Shown in pieces: positions 1,526 to 32,460 of a stretch of DNA of 33,879 nt (position 1 is the first letter of the stretch; every line of letters begins with the position of its first letter). The notes beneath the pieces were generated by a model. That model ran no database searches. It was not told the DNA's origin and saw only the letters and a list, made by a program, of their open reading frames with translations. The position numbers and the translations under genes were made by a program. The stretch is from a virus, in the IMG/VR virus record IMGVR_UViG_3300020020_000418, positions 1-33,879 of that record; one strand, 5' to 3'.

Positions 1526-4105
1526 TCAGAATAGCGATGCACCTCCACCGGCCTTCAGTCGAATGCCAGTCAGAGCAGCGATGCGCCTCTTTTGTTCTCC
1601 ATCGATGACCGCATCCATCCTTGCACCGCTCTTGGCGCCCGCCAGTTTCACCAGCCAGACTGAGAGCGACCGATCGGTGTGCGGCTCCACTCCGCTCGCT
1701 TCGGCGTAGTGCGTCCAGGCCGCGTAAAACTCCGCAAGGGGCGTCGCCGTCAGGTCGTCGGCCTTGGTCCGCTCGATGTGATCCGCGATGAACCGCATGC
1801 GGATGTCGTGCTTGTTGAGGTAGGCGTCGGTCTCAGCCTTCACCCGCTTCGGCTCGATCAGGCCGTTCTTCTTTGCCGAGAGCAGACCATTGACCGCCCA
1901 CCGCAGAATGCCTGGGCCTTCCTCGATCAGCTTTTTCGATAGCTCCAGGTCCATCAGGCCTTCGGCCTCAAAGTCGCGATCGAATGGGATGATGCGGATT
2001 CGAGATCGGATCGCGGTGTCGACGTTGTGGAATTTCGGCTTGTTGTTGCCGAGCAGCGTCAGCGACCAGGTGCGATCGAAGGTCTCGAAATTCTGGTGCA
2101 TGCCGCGGGCTTGCTGCGTGCCGTCGCCGGTCAACCCCTTGATCCTCTGCGTGTCCCAGGATGCGCCGTCCGGCACCTCCGAAGCCGTGACCATCCTCTT
2201 GCCCTTCAGCGCCCAGACATCCGCAGGATGATCGCTCCCGTATTTTTTGGCGACGAACGTCTCGAACCTGATCGACAGCGAGTAGCCGCCTGGTGCGCCG
2301 CCGGTGATGGCGACCAGGGTGTCCGCGTAGACGTTCTTGCCGTTGCGGCCGGCGCCATGCAGAAACATCAGCATCTGATGCGAGGGATCACCGCACAGGC
2401 TTACGCCGGCCCATTGCTGCAAGAGCTGCCCGATCTCCCGGTCGCCCGACGTCACCTCCTCGATGAACCGTAGCCACCGCGGACATTCCTCCTTCGGCGA
2501 GGGGTCGAACTTCCAACTCAGCCTAATCCGGTCTTTCGGCCGGCCTAACCTGGCCTGGCCCGTCCGCAGATTGACCACCATCAGCGGCCCTGCGGCGAGG
2601 TACGGATCACGGTCGAAGCCGTCCTTGTACTCCAGGAGACCGCGCAGAATTTTCTCGATTGAGGAGAGATGCCGGTGCGCCTCGAGTTGCTTGCGCAGCT
2701 TGGCGCCGGCGGGCGTCCTGGGGATCGGAATGCCCTGGACGAACGTGCCGACGATCATCGTCTCGATCCTGGCGCCCGTCTCGCCCGTCCACCTGGGCGC
2801 CTCAAAACGCAGCCACTGCTTTTCCGCCGGCACATAGCAGAGCCGGTCTCCGTAGAGGCCGGCGATCGCCCTGGCGATCGCGATCTCCGTCAGGGCATCG
2901 GCTGCCGCCTGACCGATCGCCGCCGTAAAGCGATCGGCGAAGGGCGTGCTCTGCTCGTCATCGATCGCCTTGTCGCCATCCGGCGGCAGATCGATGAACA
3001 TCTCAATATCGATCAGGCCTTTGATGCTCTTCTCGAGACCATCCCCAGGCACCGGCCTCTCGGCTACCGGCCGGTGCGTCTGGTCGTTGGCGTGATCATG
3101 CACCGTGATGTGACCAGTCGCCCTGTCGCCGCTCCAACCAACCTGGCACCGATCCATTCGGGTGCCGCCTTCGCCGGTGAACGAGCCTGAGCAGCGCAGC
3201 CGAAGCCCGAGCGCCTCATTTTGCCAGTACAGCTCGATCAACTCACCGAGTGTTACATCGCTGAAATCATCGCCGTCGAACCTCTTGCTGTCATCCAGGT
3301 CGTAGACATCCTCGAGCTTGATCAGGCCGCTCTTGTAGCCCTTCAACGGCATCAGGCCTTGAGCTGCGAAGATGCGATCGGCTTCCGCGCAGATCGCGAG
3401 CGCCTGGTCTTGGCTCAGGATCGGCAGATCACCGAGCGGCGTATCCGCCGGCGATGGCCCGCGCCACTCGTAGCGGACCAGAACTTTGCCGGTCTCATCG
3501 TCCACCGTGTGAGGCCCGAAGGCGCCAACCTGGCGCGCGACCTTGCCCTCATGATTGCGCTCGCTAGAGAACACCTCGATCTGGAACGTCGGCGCATCCA
3601 CATCCTCAGGGTTGGTCGACCACTTCTGAGACCGAATCGTAAACGGAGGAGAAACGCCGCGCCGGCAGAACAGCATGAACTTCGGCGAGCCATCGTCCCG
3701 GCCACGCTCCAGGGCGCCGCGGGCCTCGCCGAGCTGCGGCGCGATCACCGATATGGCGAGCCGCACGGCGAGCGCCATCTGAGCATCAGGCACGTCGACG
3801 TCGAGCCCGAGCAGCTCACCCACGACCTGGGCGCCGGTCGCCGCATGCAACGCCAGGCTGGCTCGATCGTTGAGCCAGGCCCTGACCTCGGCCGCATCAG
3901 GATCGAGCGAATTCCAGCCGGTGTAGAGCGTCCTCTTGTCCCGACATGGAATCGGGACGTAGCCATTGGCCAGAACCTTCAGCCGCAGCGCCGTGATCGA
4001 TGCCGCCTCACCTGGTGCGAGCGCGACCCGGGTTAATTTCTTGACTTCGCGGAGCAACTTCCGTCGTTGCGTCGACTTATTTGGTGGGTTATTGCTGCTC
4101 GTCAC
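1526..4105 (-). CDS. primase-polymerase/helicase, phage/P4 D5 type
   Basis: A large 859-residue replicative protein. The N-terminal third resembles the archaeo-eukaryotic type primase-polymerase domain: LGLDVDVPD carries the D102-x-D104 metal-binding pair, followed by a basic FMLFCRR strand. The C-terminal half is a D5/P4-type superfamily 3 helicase with Walker A GAGRNGKN at about 584-591, an acidic SEV segment at 642-644 and the polar GNNKP motif. It would prime and unwind phage DNA for the polymerase encoded at 6629. Translation appears to start at GTG 4105, with AAGGAA about 7 bases upstream. It follows the VRR-NUC gene in the same leftward unit, and the repeat cluster lies just beyond its stop, as at many phage and plasmid origins. 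Confidence 0.88.
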   Translation of the reverse strand: MTSSNNPPNKSTQRRKLLREVKKLTRVALAPGEAASITALRLKVLANGYVPIPCRDKRTLYTGWNSLDPDAAEVRAWLNDRASLALHAATGAQVVGELLGLDVDVPDAQMALAVRLAISVIAPQLGEARGALERGRDDGSPKFMLFCRRGVSPPFTIRSQKWSTNPEDVDAPTFQIEVFSSERNHEGKVARQVGAFGPHTVDDETGKVLVRYEWRGPSPADTPLGDLPILSQDQALAICAEADRIFAAQGLMPLKGYKSGLIKLEDVYDLDDSKRFDGDDFSDVTLGELIELYWQNEALGLRLRCSGSFTGEGGTRMDRCQVGWSGDRATGHITVHDHANDQTHRPVAERPVPGDGLEKSIKGLIDIEMFIDLPPDGDKAIDDEQSTPFADRFTAAIGQAAADALTEIAIARAIAGLYGDRLCYVPAEKQWLRFEAPRWTGETGARIETMIVGTFVQGIPIPRTPAGAKLRKQLEAHRHLSSIEKILRGLLEYKDGFDRDPYLAAGPLMVVNLRTGQARLGRPKDRIRLSWKFDPSPKEECPRWLRFIEEVTSGDREIGQLLQQWAGVSLCGDPSHQMLMFLHGAGRNGKNVYADTLVAITGGAPGGYSLSIRFETFVAKKYGSDHPADVWALKGKRMVTASEVPDGASWDTQRIKGLTGDGTQQARGMHQNFETFDRTWSLTLLGNNKPKFHNVDTAIRSRIRIIPFDRDFEAEGLMDLELSKKLIEEGPGILRWAVNGLLSAKKNGLIEPKRVKAETDAYLNKHDIRMRFIADHIERTKADDLTATPLAEFYAAWTHYAEASGVEPHTDRSLSVWLVKLAGAKSGARMDAVIDGEQKRRIAALTGIRLKAGGGASLF

Positions 4106-4157
4106 GCCAGGTTCCTTGAGGTTTGGAGATCGCGGGGAAATCTTGGATGTTGAGAGA

Positions 4158-4190
4158 GGCCGCCGGTCTCATGGCCGGCGGCCATTTTTT
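4158..4190 (+). terminator. strong stem-loop with T6, rightward orientation
   Basis: GGCCGCCGG (4158-4166) pairs perfectly with CCGGCGGCC (4175-4183) around an 8-base loop and is followed by A and six T (4185-4190). This is a textbook intrinsic terminator on the plus strand, yet both flanking genes are leftward. Read leftward, the same hairpin has no U-tract. It may stop antisense transcription across the primase gene, or act in the leftward RNA as a processing or attenuation structure between VRR-NUC and primase. Confidence 0.6.
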
Positions 4191-4478
4191 CTACGCTCGA
4201 TTGTCATACTCGTCCATGAGCTGGAGCACTTCAGCCCTGGTCCGACAAACACGCACATTGGCGCCGATCGCGGCATACTCATCGAGCCGCCTTCGTTGAT
4301 GCGGCGAGAGCCGTCCTCCCTTCGGTTTCTTCAATTCGACCAGTGCGATCCAGCCGATCGGCAGCGCGATCAGCCGGTCGAAAAAGCCGCGCGTTCCGAT
4401 CGTGCGGACCTTCTCGCACTTTCCGCCTCGGCGTGCGACTTCCTCCACAAGGAATTTTTCCACAGCCGATTCGAGCAT
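4191..4478 (-). CDS. VRR-NUC domain nuclease
   Basis: A 95-residue protein covering essentially one VRR-NUC domain, the PD-(D/E)XK-like nuclease fold common in phage replication clusters. Visible features are the N-terminal E-x2-V-x3-L helix, GGKCEKV, the loop GTRGFFDRL holding the acidic metal ligand, the core VELKKPKGG with E and K, and the terminal LSPHQRRRLDEYAAIGANV segment typical of the family. It likely cleaves branched or flap DNA during replication or recombination. It is the first gene of the leftward unit, divergent from the DUF2800 gene across a 65-base gap, and its partners in other phages are often DUF2800, polymerase A and SNF2 proteins, all present here. Confidence 0.88.
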   Translation of the reverse strand: MLESAVEKFLVEEVARRGGKCEKVRTIGTRGFFDRLIALPIGWIALVELKKPKGGRLSPHQRRRLDEYAAIGANVRVCRTRAEVLQLMDEYDNRA

Positions 4479-4543
4479 TGCGAATAACCCACCGTCGCGT
4501 TACTTGCTAATCATATTGTCACTACTAACCAGAGGAACGCAGA
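4479..4543. promoter_or_regulatory. divergent early control region
   Basis: This AT-leaning 65-base gap separates the leftward VRR-NUC/primase unit from the rightward replication operon, so both must start here or be read through. I see no strong -35/-10 pair. The stretch TTGCTAATCATATT around 4504-4517 is the most promoter-like. The rightward gene has a good ribosome site, GAGGA at 4532-4536, 7 bases before its ATG. Assignment as a promoter region is inferred from gene orientation. Confidence 0.4.
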
Positions 4544-5770
4544 ATGTCCGCGCATTCGAACGTCGTCGGCGGCTCGAGCGCCGCCCGCTTTCTTGGCTGC
4601 CCAGGGTCGAGAGCTATCATTGATTCGCTGCCTGACGCCGTCGACCAGCCGTCGATCTACGCGACGGAAGGCACGGCCCTGCACCAGGTCATCGCCGAGC
4701 TGCTGCTAAACGCGAAGTCGCTCCCGGAGGATTATCTCGACAAGGAGATCGTCGTGAAGGACGAGGGCACCGTCATGATAACGCAGGAGCTGATCACCGA
4801 CTGCATTCTGCCGGCTCTCGACTGGTTCGACAAGGCCATTCCTGATTCTGCGCACGCCGAAATCGAGGCGCGCGTCAACTTTCCCGGCATCGAAGGCGGC
4901 TTCGGAACGTGTGACCTCATTGCGCACGATCCAGGCGTCAAGACCTACGTCAACGATTGGAAATTTGGCTCAGGCGTTTCGGTCAAAGCTTCGTATCCCG
5001 ATCCTGATGATCCAGAATTCGAGCTGATCAACCCGCAGCTTTTGTTCTACGCTTGCGGTGCGCGTCACACCTTCCCGCACATGTTTCCGAAGGACATCCC
5101 GATCGAGCTCTCGATCATGCAGCCGCGGGCACGCGACGGCATCACCGTCACGACAACGACCGTGACCAATGATGACCTCGACGCATTCCAGGTAGCCCTG
5201 AAGAATGCCGTTGAGCTCTCAGGGCGAGAGGGTGCGCCCATCAGAGAGGGCGACTACTGCCGGTTCGCCGTCTGCCGCACCTCATGCCCGCTGAAGTTGG
5301 CGCCGATGATCAGCTTCCGCGATCTCTACGCACAGCCTGGCGACGAAGTAGCGTTCAAGAAGATCACCGCCACTGAGGACGTGCTCGCCGACATCATGAA
5401 CCTGGCCGATCGGATCGAGCCCATCATCATCGAGGCTCGCCGACAGGCACATGAGCTGCTCGAGGCCGGCGGCTCGATCCCCGGCTACAAGCTTGTGCCG
5501 AAGCGTGCGCAACGGAAATGGGCGCTCGATGAGCCGTTCATCCTGCAGGGGCTGCGGGCGCTGAAAATCAAGAAGGCCCAGGCTTACGCCTACTCGCTCA
5601 AGTCACCAGCTCAGATCGAGAAGCTCCTGCCGAAGGGCAAGGAGCTGCCGGAAAAACTGGTCTCGAAAGTCTCGAGCGGCACGACGATCGCCAAGGCCGA
5701 CGACGCCAGGCCGGACGCCGAGACGATTGGGGATACCGTCGCCGAGCTCATTTCTATGCTTGACAGCTAA
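4544..5770 (+). CDS. DUF2800 protein, Cas4/RecB-like Fe-S nuclease
   Basis: A 408-residue DUF2800-type protein. It shows the PD-(D/E)XK nuclease core: H47 in TEGTALHQ, D124 in GTCDLI, and D138-W-K140 in VNDWKFG. Four cysteines match the Cas4/AddB iron-sulfur layout: C19 near the N terminus (LGCPGS) and C239, C244, C248 in DYCRFAVCRTSC. The family is a standard partner of phage polymerase A and VRR-NUC genes and is thought to process DNA ends or assist recombination; its exact reaction is not established. The C-terminal 120 residues are lysine-rich and may bind DNA. It heads the rightward replication operon with a clear ribosome site. Identification of the fold is firm; activity is inferred. 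Confidence 0.85.
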   Translation: MSAHSNVVGGSSAARFLGCPGSRAIIDSLPDAVDQPSIYATEGTALHQVIAELLLNAKSLPEDYLDKEIVVKDEGTVMITQELITDCILPALDWFDKAIPDSAHAEIEARVNFPGIEGGFGTCDLIAHDPGVKTYVNDWKFGSGVSVKASYPDPDDPEFELINPQLLFYACGARHTFPHMFPKDIPIELSIMQPRARDGITVTTTTVTNDDLDAFQVALKNAVELSGREGAPIREGDYCRFAVCRTSCPLKLAPMISFRDLYAQPGDEVAFKKITATEDVLADIMNLADRIEPIIIEARRQAHELLEAGGSIPGYKLVPKRAQRKWALDEPFILQGLRALKIKKAQAYAYSLKSPAQIEKLLPKGKELPEKLVSKVSSGTTIAKADDARPDAETIGDTVAELISMLDS

Positions 5771-5842
5771 TAATATTGGCGATCAAGTCGGGGGGCGGCA
5801 CCTGGAATCCTCTAGCTGCCGAATGACCAAGATGAGGTTACG

Positions 5843-6559
5843 ATGAAGAACGACGACGAGGCCGGCGATCAGCCGCGCGACCGCGATATCTTCGGGGAGT
5901 TGGTCCCCGCTTGGAATTCCCCAAACGCTCTCACGACTGACCTGGTCACGGGCCTGTCCAACGTCTCGATGTCGGTGGCTTCGGCCGGCGGCTCGAACAA
6001 TGGCATGCCCTTCATCGGCATCAGCCGTCAGGGCATCTGGCAGTACGGTGTCGACGGCGTGAAGGTCGATCCGAAGTCTACCGTCGCCATGAATATCCGC
6101 TCGCTCCAGCATGGCTACATCGCCTGGGTCGACGGCAAGCCTCATGACGTCATGGTGCCGGCGAACCAGCCGTTGCCGGCGGCGTCATCCCTGCCGCCGG
6201 TTGGCGGCAACTGGGAGCTGGCCGTTGCGATCGAGATGATGTTCGTCTCCGGTCCCGACAAAGGCACGGCAGTCCTCTACAAGAACAACTCTCTCGGCGC
6301 CCGCAAGGCGATCAAGCAGTTGATCAAGGAAGTGACCGCTCAGGCCCAGATCGATCCGGCGAAGATACACCCGATCGCCAGGCTCGAGACCTCGAACTAC
6401 GAAAGCAAGAAGTTTGGCGAGATCACCGATCCGGTGTTCAAGATCGTCGGCTTCACCGATGGCCGCGGCGATCCCGGCAAGGCGTCGACGCCTTCGCCTG
6501 CGCCGGCACCTGAGGCAGCGCAACCCGAGACCGCCGGCCGTCGCCGGCGCGTCAGCTAG
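5843..6559 (+). CDS. hypothetical protein in the ssDNA-binding slot
   Basis: A 238-residue protein whose family I do not recognise with certainty. It lies between the DUF2800 gene and the DNA polymerase, the position usually held by a DUF2815-type single-strand-binding protein. The body (about residues 45-205) alternates strands and short helices, compatible with an OB-like fold, and contains GWYIAWV-like aromatic stretches (GYIAWVDGKP) and a basic helix ARKAIKQLIKEV. The tail is Pro/Ala-rich and ends in four arginines, unlike the acidic tail of classical SSB. GAGG at 5835-5838 supports ATG 5843. A ssDNA-binding role is inference from context only. Confidence 0.6.
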   Translation: MKNDDEAGDQPRDRDIFGELVPAWNSPNALTTDLVTGLSNVSMSVASAGGSNNGMPFIGISRQGIWQYGVDGVKVDPKSTVAMNIRSLQHGYIAWVDGKPHDVMVPANQPLPAASSLPPVGGNWELAVAIEMMFVSGPDKGTAVLYKNNSLGARKAIKQLIKEVTAQAQIDPAKIHPIARLETSNYESKKFGEITDPVFKIVGFTDGRGDPGKASTPSPAPAPEAAQPETAGRRRRVS

Positions 6560-6576
6560 GACAGGGTCAGGTCCGG

Positions 6577-6627
6577 CCCCTGGGCGTCAATGCCCAGGGG
6601 AATGCCGGCCTGATCCGCCTACGCGGA
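6577..6627 (+). promoter_or_regulatory. two hairpins before the DNA polymerase start
   Basis: CCCCTGGGC (6577-6585) and GCCCAGGGG (6592-6600) form a perfect 9-base-pair stem with a 6-base loop and no T-run after it. A second small hairpin, TCCGC (6614-6618) with GCGGA (6623-6627), ends one base before the polymerase ATG at 6629. No Shine-Dalgarno sequence is visible in front of that ATG. The structures may limit polymerase translation or mark RNA processing. Confidence 0.5.
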
Positions 6628-6628
6628 C

Positions 6629-8803
6629 ATGACTTTTGCGCTGGAAAAAACCATCAAGTTTGATTTCGAATCGGCGTGCGCGTTGTCGCTGCCGAAGGTC
6701 GGCACTTACGCTTATGCGGACGCCGCCAGGGCGATCATCCTCACTTACTCGATCGGCACCGGCCAGGTGCAGCTCATCCAGAAGGAAGGCCGCGGCCTGA
6801 CCTGGGATGACATCCCGGCCGATCTGAAGGCCGCCGTCGCCGATCCCGAATTCAAGCTCATCGCGTGGAATAGCTCGTTCGATCGAGCGGTCTGGAATTA
6901 CTCTCTGCCTGGGAGCCCCTTCCTGCCGCCAGAGCGCGTGCTGGATGCGATGGCGCAGGCGATGGCGTCCAATCTACCCCCGGCGCTCGATCGCGCCTCT
7001 GCGGCCCTCGGCGGCCCCGGCAAACAGCCCGACGGCAAGAAGCTCATTGCCATGTTCTGCGGCGCCGGCGCTAAAGACCCGAAGGACTTCCCCGACGAGT
7101 GGCGCCGCTTCTGCACCTACGCCGTCCGCGATACCGCGATCCTGGGGACGATCTGGCGTCAAACGAGACCGCTCCCTCTGCGGGAGTGGCGGGTTTACTG
7201 GGCGAACGAGGCCGCCTGCGAACGCGGGATCGGCGTCGATATTCCGTTCTGCCAGGCGGCCGACAAGCTCGCCGTCGAGGCGATCGCCAGGGCCGGCCAG
7301 GAGCTCAACCGGCTGACCAACGGCCAGATCACCTCCGTCAATCAGCACATCCGAATCGCCGAATGGGTCTACGAGCGGCTGCCTGAGGGCGAAGCGCGCG
7401 ACATCATGGTGACCGCCATCCTCGAGCCGGAAGAGCGCGACGAGGACGACAACCTGATCGAGGCCCTGAACAAAATCTCGATCGCCCGCGGCATTGTCGA
7501 GCGCCTGATCGACTGGATGGATGCGACCAAGCACGACGATCCGCAGCTCAAGGCCGTGCTCGAGCTCCGGGAATTTGGCGCCTCGGCGGCGCCGAAGAAA
7601 TTCGCCGCCTTCCTGGCGCAGCAATCCGCCGGCCGGCTCCGCGGTCAGATCGTGTTCAATGGTGCAGCGCAAACCGGACGCTTCAGCGGCAAGGGTGGCC
7701 AGCCGCAGAACCTGACTAGGACGCCACTAGGCGGCGACTACGGCGACTGGGAGCCGTCGACCGTCGACATGATCACCGACGGATGCACGCTCGATCAGCT
7801 CGCAGCTCACGGCGAAGGCGAGACGCCGCTGCGCAAGCTCGCGCTCGTTGTCCGGCCGGCGATCGTGGCACCTCCAGGCCGGACCCTGATCAAGGCTGAC
7901 TACCGCCAGGTCGAGGCCCGCGGCTGCCCTTGGCTGTCGCGATCGAAAGAAGCGCAAGACATGCTCGACTACTTCCGAGCCGTCGACGCCGATCCATCGC
8001 TGCCGGACCTCTACGTCAAGTCGGCCGCCGGCATGCTCAAGAAGCCGACGACCGCGATCGACAAGGCTGAACGACAGCGCGGGAAAATTGCTTCGCTCGC
8101 CTGTCAATTCGGCGGCGCCCACAATGCGCTGCTCTCGATGGCCGCCAATTATCGGACCTACTTCCCGCTCGAGGAAGCCAAGAAGATTGTCGCCGAATGG
8201 CGCGAGGCCAACCCATGGGCCCCGACATTCTGGGGCCGGCACTCCAACCATGAGAGCTTCGGCCTGATGGGTGCAGCGATGCGCGCCTATCAGACTCCGA
8301 AGTCGGTTCATGCTGCCGGCCGCATCTCCTTCACGTTCGAGCCGACGTACCTCGGCGGCACGTTGTTCATGCAGCTCCCGAGCGGTCGTCTGCTTTCGTA
8401 CCCCTGGTGCAAGTGGCGCGAATACGAAGTGAAGGACAAGAAAACCAAGAAGGTGCTCGAGATCAGGAAGGGCCTGACGTTCCGTCGGCCGATCGGCGTG
8501 CGCGCAATTTACGGCGGGCTGTTGTGTGAGAACGCGACCCAGGCAACGTGCGCGGATTTACTGCGCGAGGGCCTGGTCGTTCTCGAGGAAGGCCTTCTCG
8601 GCGACAAACTCGAGATCGTGCTGCATGCCCACGACGAAATTTGCATCGAGTGCGATGACGATCCTGAGACGATCGCGCGTGCAGTGAAGGCGCTCGAGGC
8701 CGCCATGCTGTTCGATCGCGCCTGGGCGAAAGACCTTCCACTCGCCGTCGATACGACCGAGCGTTGGTATTATTCGGCGAGCAAGATGAAAGGCGAAAGA
8801 TGA
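6629..8803 (+). CDS. family A DNA polymerase with 3'-5' exonuclease
   Basis: A 724-residue replicative polymerase. The DEDD exonuclease domain is intact: D12-F-E14, D85 in NSSFDRAVWN, and Y164-x3-D168. The polymerase domain has motif A at D424 (KADYRQVEAR), motif B around ERQRGKIASLACQFGG, and motif C with H668-D-E670 in LHAHDEI. It would copy the phage genome together with the primase/helicase encoded at 1526. The motif A tyrosine is kept, but the usual SQIE is RQVE. The start lacks an obvious ribosome site and follows two hairpins. Its stop overlaps the next ATG by ATGA, implying coupled translation. Confidence 0.95.
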   Translation: MTFALEKTIKFDFESACALSLPKVGTYAYADAARAIILTYSIGTGQVQLIQKEGRGLTWDDIPADLKAAVADPEFKLIAWNSSFDRAVWNYSLPGSPFLPPERVLDAMAQAMASNLPPALDRASAALGGPGKQPDGKKLIAMFCGAGAKDPKDFPDEWRRFCTYAVRDTAILGTIWRQTRPLPLREWRVYWANEAACERGIGVDIPFCQAADKLAVEAIARAGQELNRLTNGQITSVNQHIRIAEWVYERLPEGEARDIMVTAILEPEERDEDDNLIEALNKISIARGIVERLIDWMDATKHDDPQLKAVLELREFGASAAPKKFAAFLAQQSAGRLRGQIVFNGAAQTGRFSGKGGQPQNLTRTPLGGDYGDWEPSTVDMITDGCTLDQLAAHGEGETPLRKLALVVRPAIVAPPGRTLIKADYRQVEARGCPWLSRSKEAQDMLDYFRAVDADPSLPDLYVKSAAGMLKKPTTAIDKAERQRGKIASLACQFGGAHNALLSMAANYRTYFPLEEAKKIVAEWREANPWAPTFWGRHSNHESFGLMGAAMRAYQTPKSVHAAGRISFTFEPTYLGGTLFMQLPSGRLLSYPWCKWREYEVKDKKTKKVLEIRKGLTFRRPIGVRAIYGGLLCENATQATCADLLREGLVVLEEGLLGDKLEIVLHAHDEICIECDDDPETIARAVKALEAAMLFDRAWAKDLPLAVDTTERWYYSASKMKGER

Positions 8804-9009
8804 TTGTATGCGAAGCAGGCGACGTTGTGAGGATGTCATCGTTCACGCATGTCAACCCGGATAGCCAGTTCACGTTCAAGGCCAAGAAAGGCAGGGTCGC
8901 GGTTTTCTTACTGCTAGGTGAAGAGAGCAAAGACGGCAGTGACCCGCTCGATCTGGAAGCCCGAATGAATGAGTTTGGGTGGATTAAGAAAATCGAGCAC
9001 AAGCGATGA
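8800..9009 (+). CDS. small phage hypothetical protein
   Basis: A 69-residue protein starting at the ATG that overlaps the polymerase stop as ATGA; a longer TTG-started frame exists but lies inside the polymerase gene. It is a compact mix of strands and one helix: FKAKKGRVAVFLLLG then an acidic stretch and MNEFGWIKKI. No membrane segment or catalytic motif is visible. Proteins of this appearance are common in phage replication operons without known function. Its own stop overlaps the next gene start by ATGA. Confidence 0.75.
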   Translation: MIVCEAGDVVRMSSFTHVNPDSQFTFKAKKGRVAVFLLLGEESKDGSDPLDLEARMNEFGWIKKIEHKR

Positions 9010-9575
9010 ACCAGTACAACGACGCACCGGAGGAACGTCGGCGCGTCTATAGCCGCATCGCGCCTTTGATCCTGGCGTTTCACCATGAGAACGCCGGCCG
9101 CCGTTTCCACTCTAAAGAGCTTCAGCAATATGTGCTGAGTGGAGCGCCGGAAGTCGCGCCTAGCAGCGCCGATCGCATTCTCCGCTATCTACGGCAAGAG
9201 GGGAAACTCGATTACGTCGTGCTCAGTCGAACGCAATCCCTCTATCAATTCCGATCGAGGTCTCATCCGTTTCCAAAACCAAAAGGGAAGATCATGAAGA
9301 AAGTAGATCACAACGATATCATCATCGATGCTAACCGTGCCGACGAAGAACCCTTCCGGCTCGAGCGGCTCGATATCCTGGCCCGCATCCTGGCGCATCA
9401 CCATGAGACCTTTCTCGGCGACAAGGCGAAGGTGACCGAGCTCTACGATCACAAGGGCTGCCTCACCGTAAATTGGGATGCTGAGCCGACGAAGGAGCAG
9501 CGCGAGCTGGTCGACGGTTTCTGGGACGCCGTCTTTTTCGAGCCTGAGACTGAGCACTACGTTGTGGAGCAGTGA
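9006..9575 (+). CDS. winged-helix protein with a second C-terminal domain
   Basis: A 189-residue protein. The first 80 residues look like a winged-helix DNA-binding domain: a helical segment, SKELQQYV, the recognition-like helix SSADRILRYLRQEGKL and a wing ending in QSLYQF. A basic linker (PKPKGK) leads to a different domain beginning at Met97, with an acidic helical body and a tryptophan-containing end (VDGFWDAVFFEP). A good ribosome site (AAGGGAAG at 9283-9290) precedes that internal ATG at 9294, so the C-terminal 93 residues may also be made alone. It sits in the replication operon between polymerase and helicase genes. Function is unknown; DNA binding is inferred. Confidence 0.7.
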   Translation: MNQYNDAPEERRRVYSRIAPLILAFHHENAGRRFHSKELQQYVLSGAPEVAPSSADRILRYLRQEGKLDYVVLSRTQSLYQFRSRSHPFPKPKGKIMKKVDHNDIIIDANRADEEPFRLERLDILARILAHHHETFLGDKAKVTELYDHKGCLTVNWDAEPTKEQRELVDGFWDAVFFEPETEHYVVEQ

Positions 9576-10957
9576 TGCACGCCAAGTCTGAACTACGCAG
9601 CTATCAGAACCGCCTGGTGACAACGCTCTATGAGAGCACCGCGCACCTGGTGGTCGTGCCGATGGGTGGCGGCAAGACGATCGCCGGCCTCACCACCGTT
9701 GAGGAGCTGATCCGCGACGGCGTGATCCGGCATGCGCTGATCATGGCGCCGAAGAGGGTCGCGCAGCTCGTTTGGCCGGATGAAATAAAACTCTGGGAGC
9801 ACACGCAGCACATGACGCATGCGTTGCTCGACGGCGATCCGAAGCGGAGAGCCGCCGACATCATCACGGCGCCCGATCGGCACCTCACCATCATCGGCAT
9901 CGACAACACGCAGTGGCTCTGCGGCGAGCTCGAGCGGCTCCCCGACGATCATCCGCTGTTCGACGTTCTGATCATCGATGAGATCAGCCGGTTTCGGAAT
10001 CCGAAATCAAAGCGGGCGCGGGCCCTGCTCACCCAGGTCAAGCGGTTCAAGAATATCTGGGGCCTGACCGGAACGCCGCGGCCCAACGGCCTGGAGGATT
10101 TGTTCAAGCCGCTGCAGATCATCAGCCGCGAGAAGCTCTGGGGCCGATCGTTCTACGGATGGCGCGACACCCGTTTCTATCCGACGGATTACGAGCGCCG
10201 CAACTGGGCGATCAAGCCGGACTGGGAAGAGCGCACCAACAAAGAGGCGGCGCTCTACACCTCGACCATGTCGCCCGACGACATGCCGGATTTGCCGACG
10301 CTCAACATCATCGAGCATTACGTTGATCTGCCGGACGACGCCCAGGAGGTCTACGACCAAATGGAAAAGACGTTGTTCGCCGAGCTCGAGGACCAGGACG
10401 TGCTTGCGGTGTCGGCAGGCGTCGCATCCGGCAAGCTCAGTCAGGCAGCTCAGGGCTTCATGTACGGCAACGACGAGGACCGTATGGTCACGACGTTGCA
10501 CTACGAGAAGGCCGACTGGATCGCCGAGCTCGCCGAGAACATGGCCGGATCGCCGATGATCATCATCTATGAATTCCACGAAGATTTAGCCGTGCTGAAG
10601 CAGCTCTTCGGCGATAACCTTCCGTACCTCGGCGCCGGCGTCAGCGATGCCCAGGCGGCCAAGCACGTCGAAGCCTGGAACGCGCGCAAGCTTCCGCTGT
10701 TCGCGATCCATCCAGCCGCCGGCGGTCATGGTCTCAACCTCGGCCAGGGCGGATCGCAGATGGCGTTCTACGGTCTGCCCTGGTCCGCGGAGCTCTACGA
10801 GCAAGTGCTCAAGCGCATCCATCGGCCAGGCCAGACGCAGCCCTGCTTCATTCACGTTTGTCTCGCGCGCGAGACGATCGATGAGGCGAAACGCAATCGC
10901 GTGCTGCACAAGATGAGCATGCAGGAAGCCTTCAAAAAATACTTAAGGAAAATCTGA
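9575..10957 (+). CDS. SNF2-family DEAD/DEAH helicase
   Basis: A 460-residue superfamily 2 ATPase of the phage SNF2 type. Motifs in order are Walker A PMGGGKT (residues 29-35), DEI at 135-137 (DEIS, motif II), GLTGTP at 163-168 (motif III), a GGHGLNL motif V and QVLKRIHRPGQ at 410-420 (motif VI). It probably translocates on or remodels duplex DNA in replication or recombination. A GTG at 9572 precedes the ATG at 9575 in frame; I prefer the ATG, which overlaps the upstream stop as TGATG. The short length and missing accessory domains match phage versions that accompany VRR-NUC and DUF2800. Confidence 0.92.
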   Translation: MHAKSELRSYQNRLVTTLYESTAHLVVVPMGGGKTIAGLTTVEELIRDGVIRHALIMAPKRVAQLVWPDEIKLWEHTQHMTHALLDGDPKRRAADIITAPDRHLTIIGIDNTQWLCGELERLPDDHPLFDVLIIDEISRFRNPKSKRARALLTQVKRFKNIWGLTGTPRPNGLEDLFKPLQIISREKLWGRSFYGWRDTRFYPTDYERRNWAIKPDWEERTNKEAALYTSTMSPDDMPDLPTLNIIEHYVDLPDDAQEVYDQMEKTLFAELEDQDVLAVSAGVASGKLSQAAQGFMYGNDEDRMVTTLHYEKADWIAELAENMAGSPMIIIYEFHEDLAVLKQLFGDNLPYLGAGVSDAQAAKHVEAWNARKLPLFAIHPAAGGHGLNLGQGGSQMAFYGLPWSAELYEQVLKRIHRPGQTQPCFIHVCLARETIDEAKRNRVLHKMSMQEAFKKYLRKI

Positions 10958-18767: not shown

Positions 18768-19919
18768 CTATGTGATTTGCTGGCCGTTGACGACGATGAT
18801 CACATCGCCCTCAACCTCGATTTCGATCCGCGGCACAACGTAAGTCGGCGGCGGCAGCTCCTCGATCGGCGGCGGCAGCTCTTCGCCCCCGGTCATCACG
18901 CCGCCGAGCTCGTCGGCGAGCGCCGTGCAGATGTCGTCAAAGGTCTCGCTGTACAGCTCAGCATCCGCTTCGGAATCAACGAAGCAGACCTCGAGCAGCA
19001 CCGCCGGCATTTCGGTGTTGTTCAGAAAAAAGAGATCGGTGCGTTTCTTCGGGCCGCGATCGATGAACCCGACGGATGCGATCGCTTCCGACAGGCTCGC
19101 TGCGAGCTGGCTCTGCGTGACGTAGAGCACCTCGGTGCCCATCGGCTTTTCGACTTGCTCGTAGGCATTGAAGTGAACCGAGATGTCCAGGTCGCGCGTC
19201 TGCGAGTTATGAAAATCCGCGATCCGGTTCAGGTTCTCATTCTGGCTGGTGCTGACGTCGTCATGGTAGGTGACGACGTCGACGCCGCGCAGTCGCAGCT
19301 CATCGGCCAGGTGCTCCGTAACGCGCCTGGCCTCGTCCACCTCGTCCAGGATTCCATGCGCGCCCCTGACCTTAAGACCGTGGCCTGAGCTGATGACGAT
19401 TCTGTTGTACGGCATTGCCTTCCCTCCTCGGTACAGGCGCAGAGCTTCGTGAGCCATCTCACGTCGCCAGTCCTCATGCGGTGTGCCTGGCCTCTCGTAG
19501 AGCCGCCAGAAGCTCTCAGTCTTGCTGTCGAGCGTTCCGCAATTGCACAGCGGCGGATAGAACACGCCGTTGATGGTGCCGCCTTCAGTCAGCACCCGCT
19601 TCTCCCAGGTCTGCGTCACCTCATAAACAAAGAAGCCGAAGCACGCCGCGTCGTATTCCTCGTCGCCGCCGTTGTAGGGATCGAGATCGGCCGCGATGCA
19701 CCAGATTTCGAAATCCTCCCGCCGTTCGCCGGACCACTGCGCCCAGCCGTAGCCGACGCCGTTGCTCTCCTCGCGAAGGGTGAAGCCGCCGGTCTCGACG
19801 CCGAAGCTCCCCAGGGTCGCCGCGGCATCCTCGTCCGACAGCGGCAGCACCGCCATCAGGTCGCGCATGATGACCGGCGCCTTCTCCTGGAATAGCGGTG
19901 TGATCGGGGCATCGCTCAT
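18768..19919 (-). CDS. two-domain endolysin: tail-type lysozyme plus amidase_3
   Basis: A 383-residue cell-wall hydrolase. The N-terminal part (about 10-165) resembles the phage tail lysozyme domain: GSFGVETGGF with likely catalytic E42, then GYGWAQWSGERR. The C-terminal part (about 172-335) is an N-acetylmuramoyl-L-alanine amidase of the amidase_3 family: H180 in SSGHG, E193 (or E196) in DEVDEAR, H249 in SVHFNAY as zinc ligands and E310 in LEVCFVD as the catalytic glutamate. A proline-rich tail with a short strand follows. ATG 19919 overlaps the upstream stop (ATGA). There is no signal peptide, so it relies on a holin for release, and candidates lie on both sides. Confidence 0.88.
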   Translation of the reverse strand: MSDAPITPLFQEKAPVIMRDLMAVLPLSDEDAAATLGSFGVETGGFTLREESNGVGYGWAQWSGERREDFEIWCIAADLDPYNGGDEEYDAACFGFFVYEVTQTWEKRVLTEGGTINGVFYPPLCNCGTLDSKTESFWRLYERPGTPHEDWRREMAHEALRLYRGGKAMPYNRIVISSGHGLKVRGAHGILDEVDEARRVTEHLADELRLRGVDVVTYHDDVSTSQNENLNRIADFHNSQTRDLDISVHFNAYEQVEKPMGTEVLYVTQSQLAASLSEAIASVGFIDRGPKKRTDLFFLNNTEMPAVLLEVCFVDSEADAELYSETFDDICTALADELGGVMTGGEELPPPIEELPPPTYVVPRIEIEVEGDVIIVVNGQQIT

Positions 19920-20146
19920 GTGCGCGGCCCCTGCTTGCAATCGCGAATATCCTTGACCATCTGCGCGATTAGGTCGGTCTGGTTCTTGTTGCGCTCTGCG
20001 GCGTTGGATGCGACTTCACCCAAGACGTAGGCCGCGAATGCTAGAAAGCCGATGTTGACCACCAGCAACGCGATCGCCAGAGGCACTGACCGCATTGCAT
20101 CGACCGTAGTGCTTGCGACTTTGGCCGCCTGTTCTGGTAGGGTCAT
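19916..20146 (-). CDS. single-pass membrane protein in lysis cassette
   Basis: A 76-residue protein with one long membrane helix at about 22-45 (PLAIALLVVNIGFLAFAAYVLG), a short N-terminal amphipathic helix and a polar, charged C-terminal tail. It lies directly before the endolysin with ATGA overlaps on both sides. It could be a holin, antiholin or a spanin-like component. No lipobox or signal-arrest pattern marks one choice. Confidence 0.65.
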   Translation of the reverse strand: MTLPEQAAKVASTTVDAMRSVPLAIALLVVNIGFLAFAAYVLGEVASNAAERNKNQTDLIAQMVKDIRDCKQGPRT

Positions 20147-23220: not shown

Positions 23221-25149
23221 TTAGACCCTCGCACTTGCTGTGTAGTGAAATCCCATTTCGTTCGATGAGATGCCAGCGACGGCGGTGCCTGCGACGAAGC
23301 CGTTCTCACCAGCACCTTGAACGTATGCCGTCACTCCCGATCCGCCTTTGTAGACGCATCCGGCATTACCAACGTTGTCGTACACCGTGACCGATGCAGG
23401 GGCGCGTTTTTTGACCTTGTAATCGACGCACATTATGAAGCCGTTGACTGACCCTTGAGGGACCGTCCAGTCATGCCAGCCAGTGATGCCACCGCTTGCT
23501 GTTGGTGTCCCGACATTGATGGCGTAGTCGTAGCTCTTTTCCCAGTAGCGCATGCACAATTGGAGTTCTGCGGCGTAGTCCACCGGCTGGAATGGCGGTG
23601 CCACGGTCCCTTCTGTCAGCGACACGTCGAACAGATGAAAGAGATTGCCTGCCACGGCGTTGAAGTTTGATTGCGCTGCGGTGGTGTAGAATTGCCCGGC
23701 CTGCCATGTGTTCTTGACCCCCTGAAAATTGGACCCGGCCGCCAAACCCCACATCAGTTGAATGTTCGACCACGTCCCAGTCTGATCCAGCGGGATCGTG
23801 AACGACCTGACGACATCGGTGTTCGCTTCGGCAGTACTAATGGTGAAATCGGTGACGTAGCATCGGGTGTAGGCTGGATAGTTGCGAATGCCGAAGCCGT
23901 ATGTTCCGGCTGGCGCTCTGACACCAAACTGGACTGTCACCGTCTTTGCCGCTGTCGATCCGCTCCTCAGTTCAGCGCACCGCGCGACCTCAATATTTGT
24001 GGCGATCTGAAAGAAATTCGTAGTTGCCACCGTTGAAGTCGTCACGCACTGAACTTGCAGACGATGCGTGGAGCCTCCCGGCGTCAGGGTTGGCTGTTGC
24101 AGGATGATGTTGCCGCCGCCCGTGAGGCCGAAATAATAATAGAAGCAGTCAACGATATACGCCACCGGCCAAGTATCTGTCCCTGCAGCGGCGGTGCCGA
24201 ATTCCTGCGAGATGCGCATCCCACCATTGACGACATAGTTTTTCTTCGCCAGCGCAGCGATGCTGTCCACATAGGCTTTGTTGGTAGAGTGCGCGGCCAA
24301 TGTCGGAGACGGCAGCGCGAGCGGTCCCGTCATGGTGTCGCCAGAGCGCAGCAGGAATTGCGCGACATCAGGCTGCGGAAACGCGATCACCCATTGGCTG
24401 GATGACCCATCATTGTATTTTAAAAACGTGAGGCCGCTGTCGCTGTCGAACCAAAAACTTCCGTCGGCCGCGCCGGCGGGCGGCGTGTCTCCCACCAGAC
24501 ACGTTGCCGTGCCTGCCGGTCCTTGCGGACCCGTGTCACCCTGCTCACCTTGCGGACCTACTATCGATACGCCAGGTGGCCATGCCGCCACGCCCTTCGG
24601 GCCAAACATGAAGTGCGTCGTGATGTTGATGTAGAAATTGCCTTCGACACCTTCTGTGCTGGTCGGGTCCGTCGGACCATAGAGCACCGTGTTGCCTGCG
24701 ATGCCTTGGTTGCCCTGATCGCCTTTGTCGCCTTTGTCACCCTTTGGTCCCTGCGGGCCTGGCACGGTCGAGACCGGCCCCACCGGACCCTGAACGCCCT
24801 GCGGTCCCTGCACGCCTGTCGGACCTGTCGGCCCCACCAGCGACGTGCCAGGTGGCCACACGCCCAACGCCTTCGGCCCGTGCAGAAAGTGGTTCGAGGT
24901 GTTGATGTAGAAGTCGCCGTCGTGCCCGGTGACGGTGTTCGGAGGACCAACTCCGTACAGCATACTAGTCCCGGCAGGACCAGGCTCGCTTCCGGCCGGC
25001 CCCTCTGGCCCCATAGGCCCTGGAGGACCAGGCGGCCCCTGCTCCATCGTCTGGATAACATCGACTTGGTTGTCCAAGGTGACGACGACAGCGACCTCGC
25101 TGGTGCCGGTGCTCAGCTCGTCAGCGTTGGTGATGCTCAGATCGTTCAT
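23221..25149 (-). CDS. collagen-like tail fibre, paralogue 3
   Basis: A 642-residue protein. After a short N-terminal domain, Gly-X-Y stretches (GPPGPPGPMGPEGPAG, then [16 protein letters not shown] and GPKGDKGDKGDQGNQG) alternate with two copies of a 40-residue insert of the form DG-D/N-FYIN-x6-H-x2-GPK-x5-WPPG (about 75-115 and 160-200). A DSDSGLTFLKYNDGSSSQWVIA module and a STNKAYVDS segment follow. The C-terminal 320 residues are the receptor-binding-type domain shared with paralogues 1 and 2. The collagen parts would form a trimeric shaft. Modules recur in the spike protein at 29800. Confidence 0.8.
   Translation of the reverse strand: MNDLSITNADELSTGTSEVAVVVTLDNQVDVIQTMEQGPPGPPGPMGPEGPAGSEPGPAGTSMLYGVGPPNTVTGHDGDFYINTSNHFLHGPKALGVWPPGTSLVGPTGPTGVQGPQGVQGPVGPVSTVPGPQGPKGDKGDKGDQGNQGIAGNTVLYGPTDPTSTEGVEGNFYINITTHFMFGPKGVAAWPPGVSIVGPQGEQGDTGPQGPAGTATCLVGDTPPAGAADGSFWFDSDSGLTFLKYNDGSSSQWVIAFPQPDVAQFLLRSGDTMTGPLALPSPTLAAHSTNKAYVDSIAALAKKNYVVNGGMRISQEFGTAAAGTDTWPVAYIVDCFYYYFGLTGGGNIILQQPTLTPGGSTHRLQVQCVTTSTVATTNFFQIATNIEVARCAELRSGSTAAKTVTVQFGVRAPAGTYGFGIRNYPAYTRCYVTDFTISTAEANTDVVRSFTIPLDQTGTWSNIQLMWGLAAGSNFQGVKNTWQAGQFYTTAAQSNFNAVAGNLFHLFDVSLTEGTVAPPFQPVDYAAELQLCMRYWEKSYDYAINVGTPTASGGITGWHDWTVPQGSVNGFIMCVDYKVKKRAPASVTVYDNVGNAGCVYKGGSGVTAYVQGAGENGFVAGTAVAGISSNEMGFHYTASARV
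23798..23830 (-). repeat. 33-base exact repeat shared with paralogue 2
   Basis: Identical to 22473-22505. The pair lies 1325 bases apart in the same orientation, so recombination between them would delete or exchange fibre ends. Confidence 0.85.
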
Positions 25150-29300: not shown

Positions 29301-29807
29301 CTAAGCCCTTTCGATGTCGGTCCAGAGGACTTGAAAACGCAGCTCGACGGGACGTTTGGGGCCGCGGTAGATCACGACGACGGCGTCGATCTGCTCGATT
29401 CCGTTTCGCCAGGCTTCGACATCAAAGCTGGTCGCGATCTTGTTGTCGACAAAAGGTTGGATCGCCTCGGTGATATACTGCTCGACCCTGGTGATGGTGG
29501 CGCCCTCAGGGTCTTCAGCGCCGACGATCTTCGCCCGCTTCAGAAGCCAGAGCTTGGTGCCGATCGGCCAGCCGTTGAACAGCTCCTCGGCATCCATGTC
29601 GCCCCACCAGCCGGCGCGATCGGTCGAATCCGGGTCCGGCAGAATGTCGTCGGGGCTCGCCAGGCGATCAGTACCGAGCGCCACGATCACCGCGGTCGCG
29701 AGCGCCTGGGTATCATCAAGGGTGCCATCGTCCAGCAAGAGCCAGTCGATCGGGATCGAGTAGACCGGGAATTTGTCCGGCTGTTGAACGAGGCGAATGT
29801 CAGGCAT
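29301..29807 (-). CDS. Mu gp46-like baseplate protein
   Basis: A 168-residue protein of the phage gp46 family. Features are DIRLVQQ at the start, [38 protein letters not shown], and [11 protein letters not shown], then a helical [13 protein letters not shown] and final [15 protein letters not shown]. It belongs to the baseplate next to hub and wedge. I prefer ATG 29807, which overlaps the spike gene by 8 bases, over the TTG at 29819. Confidence 0.9.
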
Positions 29808-32460
29808 CGATCTTCTCAAACCCCCTGGCGCGGATGACGCCGTTGACGGTGAGGTTGCCGGCGAAGGTCACATCACCGTCGATGACGACGCTGCCGTCCC
29901 GCTCGACTCTAATTTTGCCGGCCAGCGCCGCGGTCGTCGTCGTTGCTTGCGAGGCTGCAGGCCCCGCCGCGGTCGTCCACTGGCCACCCGTCGCATCCTG
30001 GTAGAAAACGAAGAGCTGCCCAACTCGAGAATCCCACCACAGCATGCCGTCTACCGGGCTCGATGGCGGGGTGTCTGAGGTCACTGCGGTGGCCATTACG
30101 GGGACGGCCGCGTATGCGATCACCCACTGGCTCGACGTTCCATCATTATAAAAAACGTACAAATTTCCCGAGCTGCTATCCCAGAAGAACTGACCAGGCA
30201 CCGGAGACGGCGGCAGAGTATCGCCGATGGATGCGTAGGTCGCCGGACCAGGAACGCCCTGAACGCCTTGCGGCCCCTGCGCGCCGGCTACGCCGGTGTC
30301 TCCCTTCACACCTTGCGGCCCCGGTGCGCCAGCCGGCCCCGCCGGACCAGGCACAGTACTGTCGGCGCCTGCCGGACCCGTCGCGCCAGGTAGGCCCTGA
30401 GCGCCGGGGGCGCCTGTATCGCCCTTCGGACCTTGAAGGCCTTGCGGTCCTTCCGGTCCAGCCGGACCCGGCACCGTGCTGTCAGCGCCTGCCGGACCCG
30501 TTGCACCTGTCAGACCGATCGGCCCTTGCGCACCCGTCGCGCCCGCGGGCCCCTGCGGGCCAACGTCGCCGGGGACGCCCTGGAGACCTTGCGGACCTTG
30601 CGGACCATCAGGACCAGCCGGACCCGGCACAGTGCTATCGGCGCCGGTCAAGCCGATCGGGCCTTGCGGGCCGACATCGCCTTGCGGACCTTGCGGCCCG
30701 ACGTCGCCTTGCGGACCAGGAACTGTGCTGTCGGCGCCGGTCAAACCGATCGGCCCTTGCGGACCTACGTCGCCCTGCGGTCCCTGGACGCCCTGAACGC
30801 CTTGCGGGCCTTCGGGCCCTGTCGGCCCAGGCACGACCGAATCCGCACCAGCGGGGCCCGTAGCGCCCGTGAGACCCGTCTCGCCTTGGATACCCTGCGG
30901 ACCTTGCGGACCTTCTGGCCCCGTCGGCCCAGGCACGATGCTGTCGGCGCCGGCGGGACCAGTCGCGCCCACGTCTCCGGTGTCGCCCTTGACGCCCTGG
31001 ATGCCCTGCGGGCCTTGCGATCCAGTTTCGCCAGTCTCACCTTGCAGGCCGGTCTCGCCCTGAATGCCTTGCGGCCCTGTCGGCCCTTGAATGCCCTGCG
31101 GCCCTTGCTCGCCCTGCGGACCTTGGATCGGACCCGCGTTGATCCAGGCTCCAGTCTCGGTGTCCCAGACGTGAAGATCGCCGGTCTCAAGCACGGTGTA
31201 AGCGTCGCCGTCTGCCGCGCCTGCCGGCAGATCGGCCACGGTCGGCACCGTGCCCTTCATGTTGATGCCGGTGCCGGCGGCGCCTTGCGGACCTTCGGGG
31301 CCAATCGGACCTTGCGGTCCTTCTGGGCCTGGCACGCCTTGCGGTCCAGTTTCGCCCGGTGAGCCTCTATCGCCCTTCGGGCCTTGGAGACCTACTGGGC
31401 CTGTCGGTCCAATCGGCCCCACCAGCGAAGTGCCTAAGGGCCACGCGCCCGCAGCCTTCGGCCCAAAAAGATAATGGTTGGTAGTGTTGATGTAGAAGTC
31501 GCCGTCAACGCCCTGCCCCGGCGCCGGATTGTTTGCGCCATACAGGATGGTGTTGCCGTCAACGCCATCCTCGCCAGGTTCGCCTGGTTCGCCCTGCGGA
31601 CCTGGCGGCCCCTGGATGCCGCCGCCACCGCCACCGCCTAAAGCAAAGAGGGAATCGACATAGGCCTTAGTCGTGAGATGCTGCGGGAGCTGCGGCGTCG
31701 CCGCGCTAACTTGTTTGGTGAACTCGCCGAAGCCCTGAGTGAACTTGTCGCCCATGATCTTGACCAGCGGTCCCGCCGCCTTCGGCGTGCCGTCGTCATT
31801 CAGCGCCGCGCCATCAGGCGCGGAAAATGTGTGCGTCCCGGTCTTGTAGTCGATTGATTGGTCGTGGGCGTGAGTGGTCTTATCCTTCGTCATCTCAATG
31901 AATTGTTTACCGGCCGTCTCATAGCGTTGCTTCTGGCCTTTCTTCTTGCCGCCACCCGACGAGCTCGAGCTCGAGCCGTTACTCGCTAGCGCCTCAGCAC
32001 TCTTGCCGCCGCCGCTCTGCGAATCCTGCGGCGGCTCAGCCAACTGGAATTTCAGTTTCTTGTCGGTGCGGCCAGTGAGGAAAACGCCGTCTTTGTTGAA
32101 GTGCAGTTGATGCTGATGATGATCGAACATCGCGACGTCGCCAGGCTTCAGCTCCTTCAGCCGGTAGCGCCGATCGTCCATCACCATCGCGACCGGGAAC
32201 GAGCGGTTGCCGCCAAGGAATTGCAGATAGGCTTCGGCGCATTCCTCGATGCTGCCATCCTTGCCCTTGGTCGCCTTGTTGACGACCGATGTGAAGCCGT
32301 AGTTCTGCGGGCTCTCGATCTTCTCGCGGTTCTCGCCGCCTAAGAACGAACCCTTCATTTCCTGCATCATCGGATTGTCGCTGATCTCCTCGACAAGCGC
32401 GCGTGCGCCGCCGCTGGAATAGCCAACGAAACCTTGTTGCAATGGATTTTGACGGTGCAT
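29800..32460 (-). CDS. gp45-like baseplate spike fused to collagen-like fibre
   Basis: An 886-residue protein in the slot of the Mu gp45 spike, which normally has about 200 residues. The first 170 residues fit gp45: [51 protein letters not shown] and [16 protein letters not shown] Ser/Gly/Lys linker and a second strand-rich part ([13 protein letters not shown]) follow. [16 protein letters not shown] leads into Gly-X-Y repeats from about residue 280 to 740, interrupted by a [17 protein letters not shown] insert, a [11 protein letters not shown] insert and six ADS-T/I/V-VPGP breaks. Two QWVIAY/QWTTA-type modules and a beta-rich end close it. gp45 and collagen are both trimers, so the fusion is structurally plausible: a fibre on the spike. 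Confidence 0.85.
30240..31617 (-). repeat. collagen-like Gly-X-Y coding repeats
   Basis: Coding sequence built of nine-base-period GGN-CCN-CAR/GGN units with long near-identical blocks, for example [12 protein letters not shown] twice in succession and [10 protein letters not shown] several times. Such DNA is prone to slippage, so repeat number may vary between isolates. The minus strand is read; the plus strand shows long meaningless open frames as a by-product. Confidence 0.85.

What the first reader, a model, noticed from the sequence alone, without database searches (positions are those of the whole stretch)
29800..32460. Baseplate spike fused to a long collagen-like fibre
The gp45-like gene is four times the usual length. 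A gp45-type N-terminal region is followed by about 460 residues of Gly-X-Y sequence with structured inserts. gp45 spikes are trimers and so is collagen, so the spike could carry a central triple-helical fibre, instead of the sharp metal-capped apex known from Mu. That would change how the tail contacts or pierces the host surface. Collagen-like phage proteins are known, but I do not know of one fused to the spike. Assembly and location are inference.
Basis: partly seen in the sequence, partly recalled or inferred. Interest (0 to 1): 0.75.

Follow-up and report, generated by a model that had tools for sequence, protein, structure and literature searches.

The report
Phage spike extended by collagen-like fibre
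In a soil phage with a Mu-type contractile tail, the protein that forms the central piercing spike carries a long collagen-like fibre near its tip, and related phages have fused different fibres to the same spike several times, so the spike probably also serves as a central feeler that touches the host.

Summary
The ORF at 29800-32460 (-) encodes 886 aa: a gp45-type spike N-terminus (Pfam PF06890, E 1e-10; best PDB fold match Mu gp45), then 117 Gly-X-Y triplets (351 aa) at residues 275-740 with two structured inserts, and a 146-aa C-terminus. It lies exactly between gp44 and gp46; no second gp45 occurs in the contig. A compact Bradyrhizobium relative (L003) aligns to residues 1-270 and to the last ~60 residues but has nothing in between, so the collagen is an insert inside a spike gene, not an artefact. 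Of 134 collected relatives, 16 carry collagen, in several branches (at least 5 changes on the tree). One ends in an S74 fibre chaperone. In L034 a separate collagen fibre gene sits directly behind a compact gp45. Close relatives encode a tail sheath. Best reading: a spike that doubles as a central trimeric tail fibre. 'Instead of a metal apex' is only half right: the closest compact relatives also lack the Mu-type HxH apex. Spike-adhesin fusions (Vp4 Gp111) and collagen linkers on siphophage Tal are known; I found no description of a collagen shaft on a Mu-type spike. Trimer, position and role remain inferred.

The parts
29800..32460 (-). gp45-type central spike gene with collagen-like insert, 886 aa
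32062..32403 (-). residues 20-133: gp45 OB-type region (PF06890 covers 20-98)
31936..32028 (-). residues ~145-175: Ser/Gly-rich linker, low confidence in the model
31711..31920 (-). residues ~181-250: conserved spike-body region, probably the trimeric beta-helix stem (fold inferred; model confidence mixed)
31549..31638 (-). residues 275-304: first Gly-X-Y segment (starts in a Gly run)
31420..31548 (-). residues 305-347: structured insert 1 (DGDFYINT...GPKA...WP.GTSLVGP), shared with the fibre gene at 23221-25149
31267..31419 (-). residues 348-398: second Gly-X-Y segment, 17 triplets
31123..31266 (-). residues 399-446: structured insert 2 ([21 protein letters not shown]...VWD...W)
30241..31122 (-). 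residues 447-740: third and longest collagen-like stretch, 90 triplets in seven runs broken by ADSTVPGP-type interruptions
29956..30240 (-). residues 741-835: two repeats of a ~45-aa module ([23 protein letters not shown]) found in cyanophage tail fibres and in this phage's own fibre
29803..29925 (-). residues 846-886: gp45-clade tip ([24 protein letters not shown]), homologous to the tip of compact gp45 in L003, L006, L007, L051, L054
32472..33632 (-). gp44/gpP-like baseplate hub, upstream neighbour
29301..29819 (-). gp46-like baseplate wedge, downstream neighbour

Best explanation
This is the central spike protein (gp45 type) of a contractile-tailed phage that also serves as a central tail fibre. 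Three chains would form the spike on the hub (gp44). Their stem would run on into a collagen triple helix of up to about 100 nm (351 residues at about 0.29 nm each; my arithmetic, textbook rise), broken by small beta modules, and end in two fibre-type modules and a short beta tip that holds the trimer together. The extension would contact the cell surface before the sheath contracts. On contraction the tube and spike would drive through while the flexible collagen stays bound, bends away or is shed. Shown: domains, order, insert position, repeated occurrence, fibre modules, sheath in relatives. Inferred: trimer, central location, receptor binding, fate on contraction.
For: Spike identity: PF06890; profile match to Mu gp45 9ki1_V, E 1e-22; model best PDB match 9ki1_V, E 1e-6, then eCIS, R2 pyocin, VgrG and P2 gpV spikes; place between gp44 and gp46. 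Insert in a spike gene: L003 (322 aa) aligns to residues 1-270 at 64% and to 823-884. Not an assembly error: L002, 88% identical in the spike part, has the same architecture on an independent contig. Recurrent: 16 of 134 rows, at least 5 changes forced by starred branches (quick tree, few columns). Fibre nature: L159 ends in Peptidase_S74, E 2.5e-11; the inserted modules recur in the phage's own fibre (46% over 165 aa; 80.6% over 108 bp) and in cyanophage tail fibres. In L034 a separate collagen fibre gene lies between gp45 and gp46, with the C-terminal module also found in the window gp45. Contractile tail: sheath gene over the cut-off in 5 relatives, including L002's contig.
Against: No trimer could be modelled. 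The monomer model is of moderate confidence (mean pLDDT 60) and its spike-body part is weak. No sheath gene is in this contig, whose end cuts the tail cluster. The phage also has ordinary tail fibre genes at about 20.5-27.4 kb, so another adhesin is not strictly needed. A 100-nm flexible fibre on the piercing axis is an awkward design. All 22 gp45 matches in Bradyrhizobium genomes lie in open frames of 219-414 aa, so the extension is dispensable in the family.
Confidence: 0.7

Rival explanations
1. The extension is made on the spike but cleaved or shed during assembly or at first contact, so the mature piercing spike is compact; the collagen acts as an assembly aid, cap or transient tether.
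For: L159 ends in an S74 chaperone, a domain that usually cuts itself off (general knowledge). Compact spikes exist without any extension.
Against: The window protein has no S74 domain, and its tip is the tip of compact relatives, which suggests that it is kept.
Confidence: 0.15
2. The collagen segment is only a spacer: it holds the C-terminal tip away from the hub or lets the protein reach the wedge or side fibres, without touching a receptor.
For: No recognised binding domain in the window C-terminus; the fold search of that part gave nothing significant.
Against: Relatives end in fibre-type modules and an S74 chaperone, as receptor-binding fibres do; the same modules occur in this phage's tail fibre.
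Confidence: 0.12
3. Chance low-complexity sequence, wrong frame, or a chimeric contig.
For: Gly- and Pro-rich coding DNA is repetitive and gives long antisense ORFs.
Against: Shuffles never exceed 8 triplets against 20; the frame is open across both gp45-homologous ends; independent contigs show the same design.
Confidence: 0.02

Closest known systems
Phage Mu gp45 (PDB 9ki1, 3vto), PF06890
   Same: N-terminal spike domain, fold match, gene order gp44-gp45-gp46
   Different: 4.5 times longer; collagen insert; no C-terminal HxH metal apex
Bacillus phage Vp4 Gp111 / Deep-Blue Gp188 + Gp186 (PMC11406892)
   Same: Membrane-piercing spike fused to host-binding modules in one phage and split into two proteins in another, the same fused/split relation as window versus L034
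   Different: Gram-positive host, pyocin-like spike, carbohydrate-binding modules; no collagen shaft reported in the passages read
Tal extensions of streptococcal siphophages (PMC9437275)
   Same: Central tail-tip protein extended by collagen-like linkers, small beta domains and binding modules
   Different: Non-contractile tail; Tal is the gp27-like hub, not the spike
Collagen-like side tail fibre proteins of EHEC prophages (PMC3368898)
   Same: Phage collagen flanked by trimer-forming domains; shown trimeric and heat-stable there
   Different: Thought to be side tail fibres, not a baseplate spike
Milano, P2, phi92 central spikes (PMC10811340)
   Same: Same role at the tail centre
   Different: Short spike with an HxH motif holding an Fe ion

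Membership tests
Mu gp45 / gpV central spike | gp45 N-terminal domain (PF06890) over curated cut-off | tested here: met
   E 1.2e-10, 41.6 bits against 24.1
Mu gp45 / gpV central spike | Fold of the spike protein | tested here: met
   AF2 model of residues 1-300: best match Mu gp45, E 1e-6, then R2 pyocin, P2 gpV and VgrG; mean pLDDT 60
Mu gp45 / gpV central spike | Place between hub gp44 and wedge gp46 | tested here: met
Mu gp45 / gpV central spike | C-terminal HxH metal-binding apex (seen in Mu-like members; not required by PF06890, so treated as a difference and not as a bar to membership) | tested here: not met
   No histidine in residues 745-886 (sequence); outgroup gp45s have HxH near the end
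Mu gp45 / gpV central spike | Trimer on the tail axis | not testable with these tools
   no multimer prediction offered
Contractile tail (myophage) | Tail sheath gene | tested here: met
   Met in 5 relatives over the cut-off, including L002's contig, E 1.7e-18; not found in the window itself, whose end cuts the cluster
Phage collagen-like fibre proteins | Long Gly-X-Y array, PF01391 | tested here: met
   E 4.5e-45, 117 triplets
Phage collagen-like fibre proteins | Triple helix, trimer-forming flanks | not testable with these tools
   needs CD, SEC or structure
Spike-adhesin fusion (Vp4 Gp111 type) | Piercing domain and host-binding modules in one chain | tested here: inconclusive
   Piercing domain yes; extension is fibre-like but binding is not shown

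The most novel reading that the evidence does not exclude
In one clade of contractile phages the spike tip is an open docking site: fibre genes next to gp45 are repeatedly fused to it, turning the piercing device into a central collagen fibre that senses the host and may itself trigger contraction.
Probability: 0.35. Interest if true: 0.65.

Novelty: new variant of a known kind. Interest (0 to 1): 0.5.

Why it matters
Contractile phages are usually drawn with adhesion by side fibres and piercing by a hard central spike. A spike that carries a long collagen fibre on the same axis, apparently more than once in one clade, would join the two jobs in one protein, as siphophages do at their tail tip, and raises the testable question of how a spike with a flexible leader still penetrates. 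It also offers a natural spike-collagen junction for structural work.

Tried and rejected
A second gp45 gene in the contig or in relatives' records: none; the two matches in G009 are pieces of one frame. Long gp45 in sampled genomes of the order and phylum: the longest frames were stop-to-stop artefacts, VgrG or wrong-frame matches, none with Gly-X-Y. Fold of the C-terminal 150 residues: no significant PDB match. Relatives of the C-terminus in viral contigs: one weak locus. Viral structure library for long spike proteins: best hits are short. Papers on gp45 plus collagen, Bradyrhizobium phage collagen or VgrG plus collagen: nothing on point. Collagen as direct replacement of the metal apex: rejected, since the closest compact relatives already lack it.

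Full report
The finding concerns one ORF, 29800-32460 on the minus strand, 886 aa from an ATG. Pfam gives Phage_Mu_Gp45 at residues 20-98 (E 1.2e-10) and Collagen (E 4.5e-45) in the same protein. Between residues 275 and 740 there are nine Gly-X-Y runs with 117 triplets; the longest has 20, against at most 8 in 1000 shuffles. Two structured inserts (305-347, 399-446) break the array.

The gene sits in a Mu-type baseplate cluster: gp44-like hub upstream, gp46, gp47/J and gp48 downstream, then tail fibre genes. The contig holds one gp45. It ends just upstream of gp44, so the sheath is missing here. The contigs of relatives carry a tail sheath gene, including the one with the nearest gp45. The rest of the contig (family A DNA polymerase, D5 primase, SNF2 helicase) does not look like a Mu-type transposable phage, although the baseplate is Mu-like.

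Spike identity rests on four lines: the Pfam match; a profile match to Mu gp45 in 9ki1 (E 1e-22); gene order; and the fold. AlphaFold2 with 49 sequences gave only moderate confidence (pLDDT 60), but its best PDB match was Mu gp45 (E 1e-6), followed by contractile-injection spikes, R2 pyocin, VgrG and P2 gpV.

Relatives show what happened. L003, from Bradyrhizobium sp. Leo170 (same contig as L106), has a 322-aa gp45 that matches residues 1-270 at 64% and the last ~60 residues, with nothing in between. The tip motif VIDGDxxxxGxLxVNGVxRAxxFE is shared with L006, L007, L051 and L054. So about 570 residues lie as an insert between the spike body and the tip. L002, on an independent contig and 88% identical in the spike part, has the same collagen design (770 aa) with a different, coil-like end.

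The extension recurs. Of 134 gp45 rows collected around the window and the related group A5, 16 had collagen and one a long non-collagen fibre. The sample was drawn by similarity and is not a census. The tree needs 7 changes, and its starred branches force at least 5; gains and losses cannot be told apart, and the alignment has few columns for so many rows. Where both flanks are held, the long gp45 lies between gp44 and gp46. L159 ends in an S74 chaperone (E 2.5e-11), a mark of trimeric fibres (general knowledge). In 266 Bradyrhizobium genomes the 22 gp45 matches lie in open frames of 219-414 aa. About 40 further copies in samples of the order and phylum lie mostly in short frames, and the nine longest read in full had no Gly-X-Y runs.

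The source of the insert is probably fibre genes. In L034 a compact gp45 is followed by a separate 244-aa collagen protein before gp46; its C-terminal module matches that of the window gp45 (E 2e-6 for this single comparison). L004 has several fibre-like ORFs in the same gap. Within the window, the fibre gene 23221-25149 shares insert 1 and the end module with the gp45 extension: 46% over 165 aa and 80.6% over 108 bp. The end module also occurs in cyanophage tail fibres.

Mechanism. I think the spike doubles as a central tail fibre (0.7). Shown: domains, position, insert borders, recurrence, fibre modules. Inferred: trimer, triple helix, length near 100 nm, receptor contact, behaviour on contraction. 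Outgroup gp45s keep HxH near the end and Milano, P2, phi92 and Mu spikes have it as an Fe site (PMC10811340), but the window's closest compact relatives have none at their tips. 18 of 129 more distant clade members do have an HxH in their last 70 residues, whose role was not examined.

Known precedents. Vp4 Gp111 joins a pyocin-like piercing spike to binding modules, and in Deep-Blue the two are separate proteins (PMC11406892). Streptococcal Tal proteins carry collagen linkers (PMC9437275). EHEC prophage collagens form trimers and are thought to be side tail fibres (PMC3368898). I found no paper on a collagen extension of a Mu-type spike in the open library; subscription papers and preprints were not searched. 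Hence: new variant of a known kind.

Noticed in passing
window 23221-25149 (-): Second collagen-containing tail fibre gene, sharing modules with the gp45 insert (80.6% over 108 bp), which suggests module exchange inside the genome.
   Followed up: partly
window 1526-10957: D5-type primase, DUF2800 nuclease-like, family A DNA polymerase and SNF2 helicase genes: a replication module unlike Mu's, joined to a Mu-type baseplate.
   Followed up: no
window 18768-19940 (-): One ORF matches both Amidase_3 and Phage_lysozyme2, a possible two-domain lysin.
   Followed up: no
L159:4471-7146: gp45 with collagen and a C-terminal Peptidase_S74 chaperone; its near twin L158 has a stop after 421 aa with a 1.7-kb gap before gp46.
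   Followed up: partly
L053:3121-6168: gp45 with at least 1015 aa and no collagen, a different long fibre on the spike; runs off the contig.
   Followed up: no
L167:4648-6534: gp45 plus collagen with a weak Mtd second-domain match (E 0.0099); a retroelement nearby was not looked for.
   Followed up: no
L112-L123: Methylophaga thiooxydans DMS010 shows the same Mu-like gp45 match on many contigs, either a multi-copy prophage or an assembly effect.
   Followed up: no
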